Assembly: GCF_030068505.1 (NCBI RefSeq)
Contig: NZ_JAQOSO010000024.1
Coordinates: forward strand, 1 to 49,476
Reading direction: 5' to 3'
Source of the DNA: Roseofilum capinflatum BLCC-M114
GTDB lineage: Bacteria > Cyanobacteriota > Cyanobacteriia > Cyanobacteriales > Desertifilaceae
DNA length: 49,476 nt
Below are positions 9,084-33,784 of this stretch, piece by piece (the stretch's first letter is position 1; the number at the start of each line of letters is the position of its first letter). The translations under genes and the position numbers were made by a program. The notes beneath the pieces were generated by a model that saw only the letters and a program-made list of their open reading frames with translations, was not told the DNA's origin and searched no databases.

Positions 9084-12000
9084 ATGTTGTTATCCGTCCT
9101 CAAAAAGCGCCTAGGCTTATCCGAAGATCAACTGAAAAGGCTAGGCGCATTTCTGCTGCTGGCCTTAACCTTAGTGGGAACTCAAGGGTTAGCATCTTTA
9201 CTCGCTCGTTCCCTGTTTTTGGCTAATGCAGGAGCGGATCAACTGCCCTTGCTCTATACCTTAACCCCGATTTGTGTAATTGCTATCTCTGGGTTGTTTT
9301 CCCAGGTGATTGGTCAATTTTCCCATAAGCGCTTGCTGCAATTGCTGCTGTTAGGTAGTGCCCTGTTTATGTTGGGGTTAAGAATTTTGGGATGGTTAGA
9401 GTCTGGACTCTATATTCTGTTTATCTTTTATATTTTTTCCGAAGTCGTCAGCGTGCTGGTGATTAAAATCGGCTTTTGGAATTTGGTGGCGGATTATTTT
9501 ACGGCGTTAGAACTGAAGCGCTATACCTCTTATCTGAATTTAGCCTCTAGTTTAGGCTATTTACTGGCGAATACGATCGCCGGTATTGCCCTTCAGGTGA
9601 TTAAACCCTCTGTGCTGGTGATGGCACTGCCGGTATTGTATGGGCTGGCGATCGCCGAAATGGTCTATATTGAAATTGACCAAAACGATATCGAAGTTAA
9701 CGAACCCCATCAACAAGCGGAAACCCTCAAAGACTCCCTGCGCCAATTTCCCCAACTGATTTCCCGCTATCCGATTATTCTGTTTCTGACGGGCAATACC
9801 TTTTTACTCCTATTATTGCGGCTCTTAGGAGAATACCAATACTCAGCCATCTACGCTGAGACCTTGGGAGATGCCCAAAAATTAGCCAGTTTTCTCGCTT
9901 TAATGGCCACGCTCTTAAGTGTACTAGAATTTGGCTTATCGTCTCTCGTCACTCCCTGGTTAATTCAGACAATGGGAGTGCGACGCATGAATCTGATTTA
10001 TCCGATCACCACCCTAGCTAGTTTTATCGGTTTATTTCTCGCTCCAGGACTCGGTTCGGCGGTTTTCACTAACATTAACCAGCGCTCCCTCAATTATGGT
10101 ATGGCAGAAGCGGTACGTCTGCTGAACTATAATGCGGTTCCCCCGCGCATTTTGGGGCGGTTTCGAGTTTTGAGTGAAGGGCTATTTTCCCCGATTGGGC
10201 AAGTGTTAGGGGGTTTGATTCTTCTAAGCGCCCAAAAGTGGGGAAATTTAAGCACAACGGCCTTATTGGGTATTGGTTTAAGTATTATTTATAGTGGGGT
10301 GGGTTATTTGACCGGTCGCAGTTATCTAGATTCTTTAATGTCTATGGTAACGGAAGGATTGGTGAATTTAGAGGGGGTGAAAACGGGATGGGTGAAACTT
10401 CCGGCTTCCTATCAAGAGGAAGTGAAAAAAATGCTCACCAGTGGCGATCGCCAAACTCAGCTTTTAGGGCTACAATTAGCTACTCGTCTCCAGAACCCTA
10501 GCCAGGTGTTGCCGGAAGTGAAAACCCTGTTTTCCCACACCCACCCGGAACTGCGCCAGGGGGTAGTGACGTTTCTGAGCCAACTTCCGGCTGAGGATCA
10601 AAGCTTTTGTACCCGGAATTTGTTAGAGTCAACGGATCGCCTAGGACGGGCGATCGCCTTAGAATTGTTGATTATCTGTCAACAACCGGCTCCCGAACCC
10701 CAGCGATCGCAGTTTTGGGAAACGGGAAACCCAGAAATTCGCGCCCTGATTACCCTGGCAGACCTGCAAACCTCAAAAACCTCATTACCCGATGATTTAG
10801 ACGCTTGGGCGGCCAATTTGCCCCCCCAGAGCCAACAAAATATCATCCATATCATCGCTCGCACCAGTAACCCCGATCTATTCATTCTGCTTGACCCCCT
10901 GATCCGCCATGCTCCCTTGGAAGTCCAGCAACAGGGGTTAGAGTATATAACCTGCCTCAACTGCGAGCTGTTTGCCCAGATCCGGGAGTTGGCCGCTTCC
11001 CAGTTGGGTCATAGCGATCCCCAGGTGAGAGCCACAGCCATTGCAATTTTGGGCAAAGCGCCGGAGGAAAAGCTTCTCCCCTATTTAGCCCAAGCTTTAA
11101 CGGACGGCCATCCTCATGTGCGCGAACAAGCTGCCCAGGCCTTAGCCCATGGGGGAGAGAGCGCCCTATCTTGGGTGGAACCCTATCTAGAGTCGCCCCG
11201 TGCCGAAGTGGTGGATGGGGCGATCGCCACCTTGGGATATATGGGCACACCCCGCGCCGAAGATCGGCTCTATCACTATTTAGCGCCCCAGTTACAGCAA
11301 TTTAGCCGCAGTTGGGACTGGCGGCAGCAGATTCCCGCAGACCGTCCCCAGTGGCAACTTTTGGCGATCGCCATTCGGGACTATCAAAAACGGGTTCTAG
11401 ACCGGGTGTTCCATACCCTCTCCAGCCTGGGCTGTGGCGATACTCTGGACGCGCTCAAACAGGTGATTCATTCCCAGAATTTACGCGATCGGGCCAATGC
11501 AGTGGAAACCATCGCCTCCCTGCGCTATCGTCGATTTGTCCAACCCCTGCTCCCCTTCCTGGAAACCTGGGCTAGTGGTGGCTTGCCGCAACAGGACATC
11601 GAGACCGATGCCCAATGGATGAAAACCCAGGGCTATAAACTGATTTTAGAGAGCCTCGCTTCCCAAGACCGATGGTTAGAACTCGGTGCAATGGTGGCTT
11701 TGGTGGACATTCCTAAGACCCTGATCCAAACCCCCGATCCTCTGGTGCAGCAGGTGGCCAAAACCCTATTTCCCGCCGGAAGCCAAACCTGTCACCAGGA
11801 GCAAACCCTAGAGCGGATCTATATCCTCACCCGCGTTCAGCTCTTCCGCCATTTTTCCTTAGATGAGTTACTGTTGATTAATCAGGAATTAATCGAAGAA
11901 CAGTTTGCCCCCGAAGAGGCGATCGTTACCGAAGGATCTCAACGCCACCATCTCTATATTCTCGCTTCCGGAACCGCTCAGATTGTCAAAACCATCGGCG

Positions 12001-12239
12001 GGAATCCCCAAATCCTGGCTACCTTCCACTCAGGGGATTACTTTGGAGAATCCCAACTCTTTAACCAAACCCCCGCTTGGGTGGATGTGATCGCCCAGAG
12101 CAATTGTACTTTACTGAAATTAGAGAGCGATCGCTTCCTCGATTTGGTCTACCAAAAACCCGATATGATTATAGAAATTTGCAAACGCTTCAGCACCTTC
12201 CTCAAGCAAAGTCTAGAAGAAACCGAGATTACAGTATAG
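9084..12239 (+). CDS. Membrane transporter-HEAT repeat-cyclic nucleotide-binding domain fusion
   Basis: A 1051-residue three-part protein. Residues about 15-410 form around 12 membrane helices resembling ATP/ADP translocase (Npt/TLC) or MFS carriers. Residues about 430-880 are helical HEAT/PBS-lyase-type repeats (for example LLPYLAQALTDGHPHVREQAAQALAHGG). Residues about 905-1045 are a cyclic nucleotide-binding-fold domain (LFRHFSLDELLLINQELIEEQ, then GDYFGESQLF). In the last domain the phosphate-binding arginine position appears to be replaced (PAWVDV instead of PRAATV), so classical cAMP binding is doubtful. It follows the 5'-nucleotidase by 20 bases. Inference: a transporter regulated through its own cytosolic domains. 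The substrate is unknown. Confidence 0.85.
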   Translation: MLLSVLKKRLGLSEDQLKRLGAFLLLALTLVGTQGLASLLARSLFLANAGADQLPLLYTLTPICVIAISGLFSQVIGQFSHKRLLQLLLLGSALFMLGLRILGWLESGLYILFIFYIFSEVVSVLVIKIGFWNLVADYFTALELKRYTSYLNLASSLGYLLANTIAGIALQVIKPSVLVMALPVLYGLAIAEMVYIEIDQNDIEVNEPHQQAETLKDSLRQFPQLISRYPIILFLTGNTFLLLLLRLLGEYQYSAIYAETLGDAQKLASFLALMATLLSVLEFGLSSLVTPWLIQTMGVRRMNLIYPITTLASFIGLFLAPGLGSAVFTNINQRSLNYGMAEAVRLLNYNAVPPRILGRFRVLSEGLFSPIGQVLGGLILLSAQKWGNLSTTALLGIGLSIIYSGVGYLTGRSYLDSLMSMVTEGLVNLEGVKTGWVKLPASYQEEVKKMLTSGDRQTQLLGLQLATRLQNPSQVLPEVKTLFSHTHPELRQGVVTFLSQLPAEDQSFCTRNLLESTDRLGRAIALELLIICQQPAPEPQRSQFWETGNPEIRALITLADLQTSKTSLPDDLDAWAANLPPQSQQNIIHIIARTSNPDLFILLDPLIRHAPLEVQQQGLEYITCLNCELFAQIRELAASQLGHSDPQVRATAIAILGKAPEEKLLPYLAQALTDGHPHVREQAAQALAHGGESALSWVEPYLESPRAEVVDGAIATLGYMGTPRAEDRLYHYLAPQLQQFSRSWDWRQQIPADRPQWQLLAIAIRDYQKRVLDRVFHTLSSLGCGDTLDALKQVIHSQNLRDRANAVETIASLRYRRFVQPLLPFLETWASGGLPQQDIETDAQWMKTQGYKLILESLASQDRWLELGAMVALVDIPKTLIQTPDPLVQQVAKTLFPAGSQTCHQEQTLERIYILTRVQLFRHFSLDELLLINQELIEEQFAPEEAIVTEGSQRHHLYILASGTAQIVKTIGGNPQILATFHSGDYFGESQLFNQTPAWVDVIAQSNCTLLKLESDRFLDLVYQKPDMIIEICKRFSTFLKQSLEETEITV

Positions 12240-13291: not shown

Positions 13292-13362
13292 GTTGAAATT
13301 TATCGAAATCTCTATTAGGTTTTGAGTTTCAATCCCTAAGAGGGGTGATTGGAAATTTGAAG
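13292..13362 (+). repeat. CRISPR-like repeat with inverted partial copy
   Basis: Bases 13326-13362 (37 nt, beginning GTTTCAATCCCTAAGAGGGG) look like a cyanobacterial CRISPR direct repeat, many of which start GTTTCAATCCCT. Bases 13292-13319 (GTTGAAATTT... CTATTAGG) read, in reverse complement, like the other half of such a repeat (CCTAATAG... AAATTTCAAC). The pair could fold as repeat and anti-repeat. There is no array: only one copy in each direction and no regular spacers. Similarity was judged by eye. Confidence 0.4.
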
Positions 13363-13499
13363 AGCGATTGCAGTTGCAATCTTAAATTGCTCTGCTTGAT
13401 CAATTGTCCCCTCTATATTAAATTAGATAGATCGCTGGTTAGTTTCACCAGCAGATTGCGGCTGCCAAAGCTACACCGCCATATCCCCCGAAACCGGGG
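13361..13499 (+). ncRNA. Candidate structured RNA upstream of the RuvC nuclease gene
   Basis: Three hairpins lie in a 140-base stretch: GATTGCA-GT-TGCAATC (13366-13381) inside AGAGC/GCTCT (13361-13393); GCTGGT/ACCAGC (starting near 13434); and CCCCG-AAAC-CGGGG (13486-13499). Together with the adjacent CRISPR-like repeat they could form a guide or tracr-like RNA for the downstream nuclease, or be the hairpin end of an IS605-type element. No promoter was identified. Speculative. Confidence 0.3.
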
Positions 13500-13557
13500 A
13501 ACATCCGAAGATATTATAGTGATTATACCACCCAAAACCAATTTTTAACCACACTTC

Positions 13558-15123
13558 ATGATCTGTAAAGTTAGTGAATTTAAGGCCAATTTTACAGCCG
13601 ATCAAATCGCCACTACTAAAGCCGGTCATGAGAGAATGGGCGATAAGGATCACGTCTTCACCCGTGCCGAGATTAAAGCCTCTGGATGGTTTGGCGGCTA
13701 TGGCTACTCTTGCCCCATTCAACGCGACCACAACCCCGGACTAATCAGCAATTCAGCCATGAAGGACTCCAAACGAGGCTTAGGCATCCTTGCCAGGGCT
13801 AGAGATTTACAAGACCGGTCAATTATTACCCCCGACCTCCTCAAAGATTTAGACCGGCAACTGATCCTCAACGTGCAACAAAAATATCGCATGGGATTAC
13901 TCGAACAACTAGGGGGCGCTTGGGATAAATATGTAAAAGACCGCTACAGTAAAGAATCCCTACGTCGAGGAAAGCCGAAATTTAAGGGAACGAATACCCC
14001 TGTAACCACCATTCGCCACCCCAACCCCAATGCCGGAGGCAAAAAACCCCAATCAGCCGATGCTGTCCGCACTGTAGGAGAAAATCGGCTAAAAATCCCC
14101 GGTTTTGGCGATGTTCACCTCCCCGGACTTGACCAGCGCTGGGGAAAGAGTCGGGTAAAAGTGATGCAAATTGTCGAGAAAGCATCCGGGTTTTTTGTCC
14201 AACTCACCCGCGAAGAACCGCCCCGACGGGTGCGAAATGTGGAGCCGAGAGGCTATGCAGGGGTTGATTGGGGATGGAAAGAAGAGAACTATTGCTCCGT
14301 AACTTGGGTGAATGAAGAGGGAAAAACCCGCAGTCAACAAATCAGTAAACCCCGATTTTATCGGGACTCCCAAGAAAAACTGAAGAAAGCACAGCAACAC
14401 CTGGATGAGAAACTCTACCGTCGGCTGATTCTGTGGATACATCACCCGGACACGAATCTATTGGATTATGTCTCGAAAGCAGATGCGGACATCCTCAAAA
14501 CTTGCCGCACGGTTGAGGATTTGTGCGCCCATATTGGTGTTGACTTAAACGCCAGCACCATTCAGCGCCTACGGTGGAAGCAGTGCGGAGACTCCCAAGG
14601 GGTGAAAAACTGCAAGCAGAAAATCAAGCGCATCCACGAAAAGACGAAACGCAGACGGCGATCGCATCAATACCGGATTGCTTCCTATTTAACCACCTAT
14701 TCCTCCGGTATCGCCGTTGAGCATGGCTTGCAGAATAAGGTAGGAAAGGCAAAAGCCAAAGCCAAAGAGGACGGGAGCGGCTTTGACAAAAACCAAGCGG
14801 CGGCTGTAGCGGGCCAAAATAAGAGTAATCTGGATGCGGCGATCGGTCAACAAATCGACTTAATCGACAAGAAAACCCAAGAATTCGGTAAAAAGATGCA
14901 GCGCCTAAAACCTGCGTCCGATCTACCCTTATCTCGGATTTGCTGCCAATGCCTAGCCTATGATCCAGACATGGACATCAATAAGCCTGTCTATCGGTGT
15001 ACCCATTGCGGATATGAAGGCGATCGGGATATCAACTCTTCCGAACTCATCGCCAAACTCGGACGCGAACCCAACCTCCAAAAAACCATCAAACAAAACA
15101 TCAAGAAAACCCGCAAAAAATAG
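13558..15123 (+). CDS. TnpB/Cas12-like RuvC nuclease
   Basis: A 521-residue protein of the TnpB/Cas12 superfamily. The C-terminal RuvC nuclease has all three acidic residues: Asp237 in GYAGVDWG, Glu388 in GIAVEHG and Asp491 in GDRDIN. A four-cysteine zinc knuckle (Cys462/465 and Cys481/484) lies just before the last motif. A basic KCKPKFKG-like stretch is seen near residues 137-144 (RRGKPKFKG). Between Asp237 and Glu388 there is extra sequence (about 290-350) beyond the usual TnpB helices, and the N-terminus is unlike typical TnpB. There is no tnpA gene beside it. TnpB is about 370-420 residues, so the size is nearer to small type V-U effectors. A stop lies four codons upstream of the start. 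Activity as an RNA-guided nuclease is inferred. Confidence 0.82.
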   Translation: MICKVSEFKANFTADQIATTKAGHERMGDKDHVFTRAEIKASGWFGGYGYSCPIQRDHNPGLISNSAMKDSKRGLGILARARDLQDRSIITPDLLKDLDRQLILNVQQKYRMGLLEQLGGAWDKYVKDRYSKESLRRGKPKFKGTNTPVTTIRHPNPNAGGKKPQSADAVRTVGENRLKIPGFGDVHLPGLDQRWGKSRVKVMQIVEKASGFFVQLTREEPPRRVRNVEPRGYAGVDWGWKEENYCSVTWVNEEGKTRSQQISKPRFYRDSQEKLKKAQQHLDEKLYRRLILWIHHPDTNLLDYVSKADADILKTCRTVEDLCAHIGVDLNASTIQRLRWKQCGDSQGVKNCKQKIKRIHEKTKRRRRSHQYRIASYLTTYSSGIAVEHGLQNKVGKAKAKAKEDGSGFDKNQAAAVAGQNKSNLDAAIGQQIDLIDKKTQEFGKKMQRLKPASDLPLSRICCQCLAYDPDMDINKPVYRCTHCGYEGDRDINSSELIAKLGREPNLQKTIKQNIKKTRKK

Positions 15124-33512: not shown

Positions 33513-33569
33513 TGATGTGTTACCTCCATGGTCTGAGTCAGACCTTACTCGGACTTTGGCATTAGTGGC

Positions 33570-33606
33570 CCAAAAGCAACGCCCCGACGGGGAGCCGGGG
33601 CGTTGC
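33570..33606 (-). promoter_or_regulatory. Attenuator-like hairpin in the rplJ leader
   Basis: An 11-bp GC-rich perfect stem (33576-33586 with 33596-33606) is followed on the minus strand by TTTT, giving an intrinsic terminator shape between rplA and rplJ. L10 or L10-L12 often regulate this leader in other bacteria. Here partial termination would set the ratio of L10-L12 to L11-L1. Confidence 0.6.
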
Positions 33607-33784
33607 GGGCGAAAATGAGCGCCCCAATCTGGCCATACTGAGTTGGCGATCGGGGATTTAAGAACATTTTCGATAGGCCTCGGCAGGAAATTAAGCAGTA
33701 CGCACCTGCTATCTTGGGCTGAATTGATATAAAAAATTCAGAGGTTTAGAGTTTTAGACGCGCTGCAATCTAAATCTGTACAAG

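What the first reader, a model, noticed from the sequence alone, without database searches (positions are those of the whole stretch)
13292..15123. RuvC nuclease gene next to CRISPR-like repeat and hairpins
A TnpB/Cas12-like protein with intact Asp237/Glu388/Asp491 lies 195 bases after a 37-nt GTTTCAATCCCT... sequence like a cyanobacterial CRISPR repeat. An inverted partial copy precedes it (13292-13319), so the two could pair as repeat and anti-repeat. Three further hairpins (13361-13499) lie between the repeat and the gene. No array, no cas1/cas2 and no tnpA are visible. A small RNA-guided nuclease using a solo repeat or a guide RNA placed upstream is possible.
Basis: partly seen in the sequence, partly recalled or inferred. 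Interest (0 to 1): 0.75.

Follow-up and report, generated by a model that had tools for sequence, protein, structure and literature searches.

The report
Decaying V-U2 CRISPR-Cas12 locus in Roseofilum
The gene is a small CRISPR nuclease of the poorly studied V-U2 group whose close relatives carry full CRISPR memories beside it, but in this genome the memory is gone and part of the nuclease is missing, so it is most likely a recently broken immune system rather than a new kind of tool.

Summary
The 521-aa ORF is a type V-U2 (C2c8/Cas12u2) effector with intact RuvC residues. In three of the five other genomes held for its genus (Roseofilum) the same slot holds a 600-601-aa effector, an array of 4, 21 or 12 repeats (37 nt), a leader, and a conserved 82-nt hairpin block plus anti-repeat. 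The window copy lacks array and leader, has an in-frame 237-bp deletion (79 residues, inferred start of the REC domain) and an interrupted anti-repeat. Two facing repeats and the hairpins remain. Best explanation: a recently disabled V-U2 locus. Window-branch substitutions still look purified (2 N, 9 S), so retained function is not excluded. Boldest reading: array loss fused tracr-like RNA, one repeat and one guide into a natural single-guide RNA for a shortened nuclease; controls for that pairing were no better than shuffles. In the intact relatives two things deserve tests: a candidate tracrRNA opposite to cas12 (support uneven among the three), and a leader shared with class 1-type arrays, suggesting spacer acquisition in trans. 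No expression data exist here.

The parts
13558..15123 (+). V-U2 (C2c8/Cas12u2) effector, 521 aa, internally shortened by 79 aa relative to relatives
   Evidence: PADLOC Cas12u2 E 1e-113, profile 93-444 of 445; NCBIfam V_cas_c2c8 E 8.3e-69, 232.8 bits, below its cut-off of 350; relative L087 matches both profiles from position 1
13607..13616 (+). junction of the 237-bp in-frame deletion; the short repeat CGCCACC flanks the segment in the relative
   Evidence: equivalent breakpoints at CDS offset 50-58; no match to the segment better than E 0.05 in the own genome
14266..14268 (+). codon of RuvC Asp237
   Evidence: invariant column, D316 of the relative
14719..14721 (+). codon of RuvC Glu388
   Evidence: invariant column, E467 of the relative
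15028..15030 (+). codon of RuvC Asp491
   Evidence: invariant column, D570 of the relative
13434..13515 (-). conserved hairpin block, tracrRNA-like scaffold on the strand opposite to cas12 (strand inferred)
   Evidence: 74/82 identical to the nearest relative, 72/82 to the other two; 22 drawn pairs formed in 4 of 4 sequences, 2 with changes on both sides
13522..13527 (-). TATAAT, possible -10 element of the scaffold RNA; no convincing -35
   Evidence: by eye; the consensus scan did not report it, and its single other site is at chance level
13405..13433 (-). anti-repeat region, interrupted by about 7 nt relative to relatives
   Evidence: alignment A5; relatives have 12-13-nt exact anti-repeats here
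13363..13404 (.). stretch between anti-repeat and repeat with a small palindrome; part of it (about 13352-13379) has short matches elsewhere in genomes of the genus
13326..13362 (-). repeat R1; likely crRNA sense on the minus strand, ending GGGATTGAAAC; origin ambiguous between V-U2 and class 1-type repeats
   Evidence: scores 21.0 (Lyngbya V-U2) and 18.0 (G137 V-U2), against 12.5-17.0 for five class 1-type repeats of the own genome (25-27 identities each) and 9.5-11.5 for the three Roseofilum V-U2 repeats
13292..13325 (+). repeat R2; V-U2-type repeat of the nearest relative in inverted orientation, facing R1
   Evidence: 30 of its 34 nt identical, score 24.5; 93% over 30 nt to four array repeats of the relative

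Best explanation
A type V-U2 CRISPR-Cas12 locus that has recently been disabled. Shown by comparison: the intact form in the genus is [cNMP-binding gene] - array - leader - anti-repeat/hairpins - cas12u2 - [FMN reductase gene]; the window copy lacks array and leader, has an interrupted anti-repeat, and lacks 79 residues of the effector. Inferred for the intact form: array and a tracr-like RNA are transcribed leftward, opposite to cas12; crRNA and tracrRNA pair through CTCTATTAG/CTAATAGAG; the effector cuts DNA with RuvC after PAM recognition by WED/REC; spacers are added by the resident class 1 Cas1/Cas2 through a shared leader. Inferred for the window copy: without array, leader and what should be the first REC helices it can neither take up spacers nor recognise targets normally; the two facing repeats are leftovers of rearrangement in the array.
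For: Family. Synteny and arrays in 3 of 5 other genomes of the genus. 79-aa/237-bp in-frame deletion with short flanking repeats; no match to the segment better than E 0.05 in the rest of the genome. In ISDra2 TnpB the REC domain is residues 13-116 and reads the TAM together with WED (PMC10097598, passages); the lost segment begins about residue 18-20, so probably inside REC. No match to the relative's leader at this locus; only the hairpin end of that block matches. Anti-repeat interrupted. R2 is the relative's array repeat type. 0 identical spacers among 34 of three relatives, so the intact loci change. Anti-repeats: exact complements of 12, 13 and 12 nt about 140 nt before the start codon in 3 of 3 intact relatives, with one pair C-G in one and U-A in another.
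Against: Open frame, no stop or frameshift. Window branch 2 non-synonymous and 9 synonymous changes (4 further synonymous ones unpolarised; crude binomial P 7e-5 against neutrality), the intact sister 4 and 9, so either the loss is recent or the short protein is still selected. All 22 hairpin pairs are kept in the window. The tracr model of the intact loci has mixed support: duplex energy was matched by 0.3%, 6.3% and 43% of 300 shuffles in the three relatives, and in the third, where that same pair is broken (G opposite A), two foreign repeats paired better than its own (the third's upstream piece was 3 nt off). No expression data; the deletion rests on one assembly.
Confidence: 0.72

Rival explanations
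1. Still working, minimal: loss of the array put the tracr-like scaffold, anti-repeat, a hairpin linker, one repeat (R1) and one guide on one minus-strand transcript, a natural single-guide RNA for a shortened, perhaps binding-only effector.
For: Order on the minus strand fits; MFE and centroid pair AGAGGGG of the anti-repeat region with CCCCTCT of R1 (pair probabilities 0.6-0.99); those bases differ from the relatives' AGAGAT/ATCTCT on both sides; RuvC residues intact; purifying pattern on the branch; all hairpin pairs kept.
Against: Real R1 does not pair better than shuffled R1 (77% of 300 shuffles as good; 16% of 200), and the window scaffold pairs as well or better with the relatives' repeats (-18.5 to -21.0 against -18.8). 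R1 may be a class 1-type repeat. The guide position is filled by an inverted repeat, not by foreign-looking sequence. Part of the effector is deleted. No convincing promoter.
Confidence: 0.15
2. The facing repeats are stray pieces of arrays, R1 perhaps of class 1 type, and the hairpins are only a 5' regulatory leader of cas12u2; the V-U2 effector uses crRNA alone.
For: R1 scores 17.0 with the genome's own C87 repeat, little below its best V-U2 scores of 21.0 and 18.0, and above its scores with the Roseofilum V-U2 repeats; the V-U2 arrays found outside the genus lie downstream of the gene, and no anti-repeat of score 9 or more turned up in the two of them searched; a review lists V-U2 as crRNA without tracrRNA (PMC11641405, passages); duplex controls are uneven.
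Against: R2 is clearly of the Roseofilum V-U2 type; anti-repeat present in 3 of 3 intact relatives; the minus strand folds more stably than the plus strand in 4 of 4 (160 nt each, no shuffle control).
Confidence: 0.1
3. An ordinary IS200/IS605-type TnpB with its omegaRNA.
For: Weaker OrfB_IS605 and TnpB profile matches.
Against: Within NCBIfam c2c8 matches at 8e-69, TnpB at 1e-19 at best; arrays beside relatives; one full match in the genome, the two others being weak (30% over about 79 aa); no tnpA recognised by eye among ORFs at 8-20 kb; fixed syntenic slot.
Confidence: 0.03

Closest known systems
Type V-U2 CRISPR-Cas (C2c8/Cas12u2), e.g. Microcystis NIES-2481 plasmid p1 and cyanophage vB_AphaS-CL131
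   Same: Same effector family by profile; small RuvC effector; 36-37-nt repeats; the phage paper notes no other cas genes nearby
   Different: In both, and in Lyngbya and G137, the array is downstream of the gene; for the phage the authors found no tracrRNA (PMC6293099, passages). In Roseofilum the array is upstream with an anti-repeat and a class 1-like leader; in the window it is gone and the effector is shortened
Type V-F (Cas12f) and V-K (Cas12k) with tracrRNA
   Same: Small Cas12 with a tracrRNA whose anti-repeat is at its 3' end (recalled)
   Different: Effector scores higher with Cas12u2 than with the Cas12f profiles; RuvC intact, unlike Cas12k (recalled)
TnpB/omegaRNA and TranC intermediates (LaTranC)
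   Same: RuvC kinship by sequence profile; single RNA holding scaffold and guide in the bold reading
   Different: Array-derived here; no transposon seen; LaTranC matched only over the C-terminal part; its biology is recalled, no paper on it was found in the library

Membership tests
Type V-U2 CRISPR-Cas | Effector in the C2c8/Cas12u2 family | tested here: met
   PADLOC Cas12u2 379 bits; NCBIfam c2c8 232.8 bits, best family there but below the curated cut-off of 350, as are the three intact relatives at 274-283
Type V-U2 CRISPR-Cas | CRISPR array next to the gene | tested here: not met
   Window: two facing repeats only, no array of three or more; intact relatives: 4 (plus degenerate end), 21 and 12 repeats. 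The window copy is a remnant, not a complete member
Type V-U2 CRISPR-Cas | Intact RuvC catalytic residues | tested here: met
   D237, E388, D491
Type V-U2 CRISPR-Cas | Complete N-terminal WED/REC part | tested here: not met
   79 aa missing; best stretch begins at profile position 93 (PADLOC) or 102 (NCBIfam), against 1 in relatives
Type V-U2 CRISPR-Cas | RNA-guided DNA targeting | not testable with these tools
   needs an assay
Type V-F (Cas12f) | Best match to a Cas12f profile | tested here: not met
   best Cas12f profile 281 bits against 379 for Cas12u2
Type V-K CAST | Tn7-like genes and dead RuvC | tested here: not met
   RuvC residues intact; none of six neighbouring genes matched a transposition family; tns profiles were not searched as such
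IS200/IS605 TnpB | IS-borne, with TnpA or IS ends | tested here: inconclusive
   no TnpA recognised by eye among ORFs at 8-20 kb, one full match in the genome; IS ends and TnpA profiles not searched

The most novel reading that the evidence does not exclude
Array loss re-fused a split guide: the window locus makes one minus-strand RNA (13516 to 13290) with scaffold, anti-repeat, linker hairpin, repeat R1 and a guide that reads as the antisense of a V-U2 repeat, serving a shortened Cas12u2 that binds or cuts other V-U2 arrays or pairs with their crRNAs. This would be a natural reversal of the tracrRNA/crRNA split. (Lowered from 0.07 to 0.06 on rechecking, because R1's kinship is ambiguous.)
Probability: 0.06. 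Interest if true: 0.85.

Novelty: new variant of a known kind. Interest (0 to 1): 0.42.

Why it matters
V-U2 effectors are among the least studied Cas12 relatives: a 2021 review lists their function as unknown and notes that V-U loci lack acquisition genes (PMC7889808, passages). The Roseofilum set makes this testable: V-U2 arrays whose leader matches class 1-type arrays of the same genus, and a candidate tracrRNA on the opposite strand. The window itself is a natural example of decay with intact sister loci to compare.

Tried and rejected
Facing repeats as the repeat/anti-repeat pair: rejected, since relatives carry a separate anti-repeat. Duplex energies as proof of tracr pairing: clear in one of three relatives (0.3% of 300 shuffles as good), marginal in the second (6.3%), failed in the third (43%, and foreign repeats paired better than its own); window R1 failed (77%). 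AlphaFold2 of the relative and of the window protein: mean pLDDT 41.6 and 41.4 with four sequences, so no fold search was run. Viral contigs: 0 with the single protein, one distant locus with the alignment (L090, not followed up). Phage records: 1 match; plasmid records: 24, one of them annotated C2c8, most annotated TnpB or transposase. Wider genome searches: 8 of 388 genomes of the order at E 1e-20, the window's included; 2 of 386 of the phylum at E 1e-40, both of the genus; the listed genomes had at most three candidates scored in full, so misses are possible. Genome-contig scan: 3 relatives among 50 candidate stretches. A 29-nt part of R1 and a 28-nt part of R2, exact, in viral contigs: 0 and 0. 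Phage protospacers of the relatives' spacers: not searched. One search misplaced one start and one breakpoint codon; its branch counts are replaced. Searches used the same start for the third relative, 3 nt off.

Full report
What is there. The ORF at 13558-15123 encodes 521 aa. Its best families are Cas12u2 in PADLOC (1e-113) and V_cas_c2c8 in NCBIfam (8.3e-69, 232.8 bits; the curated cut-off is 350, which the intact relatives at 274-283 bits do not reach either). Generic TnpB profiles match more weakly (1e-19 at best in NCBIfam). RuvC residues D237, E388 and D491 are in columns invariant across the eight proteins aligned. A 37-nt repeat (R1, 13326-13362) and an inverted, near-complete second repeat (R2, 13292-13325) face each other. 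R2 is the array repeat type of the nearest relative (30 of its 34 nt identical, score 24.5). R1 is ambiguous: it scores 21.0 and 18.0 with the V-U2 repeats of Lyngbya and of genome G137, 17.0 with the own genome's C87 repeat, 12.5-15.0 with four other class 1-type repeats, and only 9.5-11.5 with the three Roseofilum V-U2 repeats and that of Microcystis; the best shuffle in any of these comparisons was 9.0.

What it came from. The genus search found the gene in 4 of 6 genomes, the window's included. One relative is named Roseofilum acuticapitatum BLCC-M154 and another is the MAG UBA2566, so the window's genus is taken to be Roseofilum; its species is not known to me. The neighbouring cNMP-binding and FMN reductase genes stand around it in all four. 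The three relatives have effectors of 600-601 aa and arrays of 4 (plus a degenerate end), 21 and 12 repeats of 37 nt between the cNMP-binding gene and cas12. Their 34 spacers (3, 20, 11) include no identical pair. Of the two genomes without the gene, one (G127) seems to have a different gene in the slot, as read by eye across a contig break; in the other the two neighbours lie on different contigs.

What is broken in the window. (1) 237 bp are missing in frame, leaving 521 aa; in the relative the segment is flanked by CGCCACC, and no match to it better than E 0.05 exists in the genome. The relative matches the c2c8 profile from position 1, the window copy from 102. The lost part starts where, in ISDra2 TnpB, the REC domain begins (REC 13-116, WED 1-12 and 117-176; PMC10097598, passages); this mapping rests on the position just after the first strand, since the printed alignments to solved structures start further in and the AlphaFold2 models were too poor to use. 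(2) Array and leader are gone: of the relative's 331-nt block after the array only its last 63 nt, the start of the hairpins, match here. (3) The anti-repeat region carries about 7 extra nt. What is kept: the hairpin block 13434-13515, 74/82 identical to the nearest relative and 72/82 to the other two, with all 22 drawn pairs formed in 4 of 4 sequences and two pairs changed on both sides. In controls 25 of 500 shuffles reach the covariation score and 128 of 500 the number of such pairs, no slid structure does, and two of the four rows are identical there, so this is suggestive only.

Which strand and how the intact form may work. The leader of the relative's V-U2 array matches the flanks of 5 of the 6 arrays of the window's own genome that I compared (C1, C20, C55, C87, C100: scores 52-60, best shuffle 40 or less; not C30), at nearly the same distance, about 90-100 nt, from the array; the other two V-U2 leaders match the same five with scores of 32-48. 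cas1 is present in 6 of 6 genomes of the genus, and in the window's genome one copy lies on the contig of the C20 array. Since V-U2 repeats and leader stand in the same order as in those arrays, the likely crRNA sense is the strand opposite to cas12, and spacer uptake by class 1 proteins in trans is suggested (inference; that those arrays are class 1 is itself inferred from repeat type and cas1, not tested with effector profiles). On that strand the hairpins precede an exact complement of the repeat of 12, 13 and 12 nt in the three intact relatives, as expected of a Cas12-type tracrRNA with a 3' anti-repeat (recalled). One flanking pair is C-G in one, U-A in another, and broken in the third. 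The minus strand folds more stably than the plus strand in 4 of 4 (no shuffle control). Against it: duplex energies beat shuffles clearly in one relative, marginally in the second, not in the third, and the two V-U2 loci outside the genus that I searched showed no anti-repeat.

Dead or alive. Polarised with two outgroups and leaving out the deletion, its four junction codons and four unpolarised synonymous changes, the window branch has 2 non-synonymous and 9 synonymous changes, its sister 4 and 9 (crude binomial P 7e-5 and 5e-4 against neutral site proportions). So most of the branch was under selection; the deletion is recent or the short protein still matters. The fused-guide reading is drawn (AGAGGGG pairs CCCCTCT with probability 0.6-0.99), but shuffled R1 does as well in 16% of 200 trials there and in 77% of 300, and the relatives' repeats pair with the window scaffold as well as R1 does. 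I therefore hold decay at 0.72 and a working minimal system at 0.15.

Compared with what is known. V-U2 is an established but uncharacterised group. The cyanophage CL131 report describes one with an array and no tracrRNA found (PMC6293099, passages), and one review lists V-U2 as crRNA only (PMC11641405, passages). The 2025 classification paper mentions V-U once and has no occurrence of 'V-U2' in its main text (PMC12669027, passages). A Roseofilum reptotaenium CRISPR paper reports a type I-D system and has no occurrence of 'type V' (PMC5177637, passages). Seven searches of the held library showed, among the titles and abstract beginnings listed (87 rows of several hundred papers), nothing on a V-U2 tracrRNA or a leader shared with class 1 arrays. 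Most papers of subscription journals are not held and two relevant ones were not available, so this is weak evidence about what is in print.

Noticed in passing
L041:1242-1328, L042:9104-9147, and flanks of arrays in L048, L049, L051, L052, L053: V-U2 arrays of the relatives and five class 1-type arrays of the window's genome share a leader motif (AAATCGCTGAAACCCT...CCGACG) about 90-100 nt from the array.
   Followed up: partly
L042 about 9243-9270 (-214 from the gene) and the matching place in L043: A degenerate solitary repeat in array orientation stands between leader and anti-repeat in two of three relatives, resembling the delocalised crRNAs of V-K systems (recalled).
   Followed up: no
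L044 about 9392-9410: In Lyngbya aestuarii the 3' end of the V-U2 ORF contains 19 nt identical to the 3' half of its array repeat, followed by sequence that could act as a guide, as in TnpB omegaRNAs.
   Followed up: no
window 33564-33736 (-): Ribosomal protein L10 leader match just over Rfam's gathering score (44.2 against 44).
   Followed up: no
window 9084-12239 (+): 1051-aa protein with an MFS-like N-terminus (below Pfam cut-off), HEAT repeats and a C-terminal cNMP-binding domain.
   Followed up: no
G000:C14:4127-4483 (L100): Second, partial cas1 match (profile 167-283) in an open frame of 169 aa on a 4.8-kb contig.
   Followed up: no
L055, about 4-5.7 kb after the c2c8 gene: The Microcystis plasmid has, besides its 24-repeat V-U2 array, a second family of regularly spaced 48-nt units (21 copies).
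   Followed up: no
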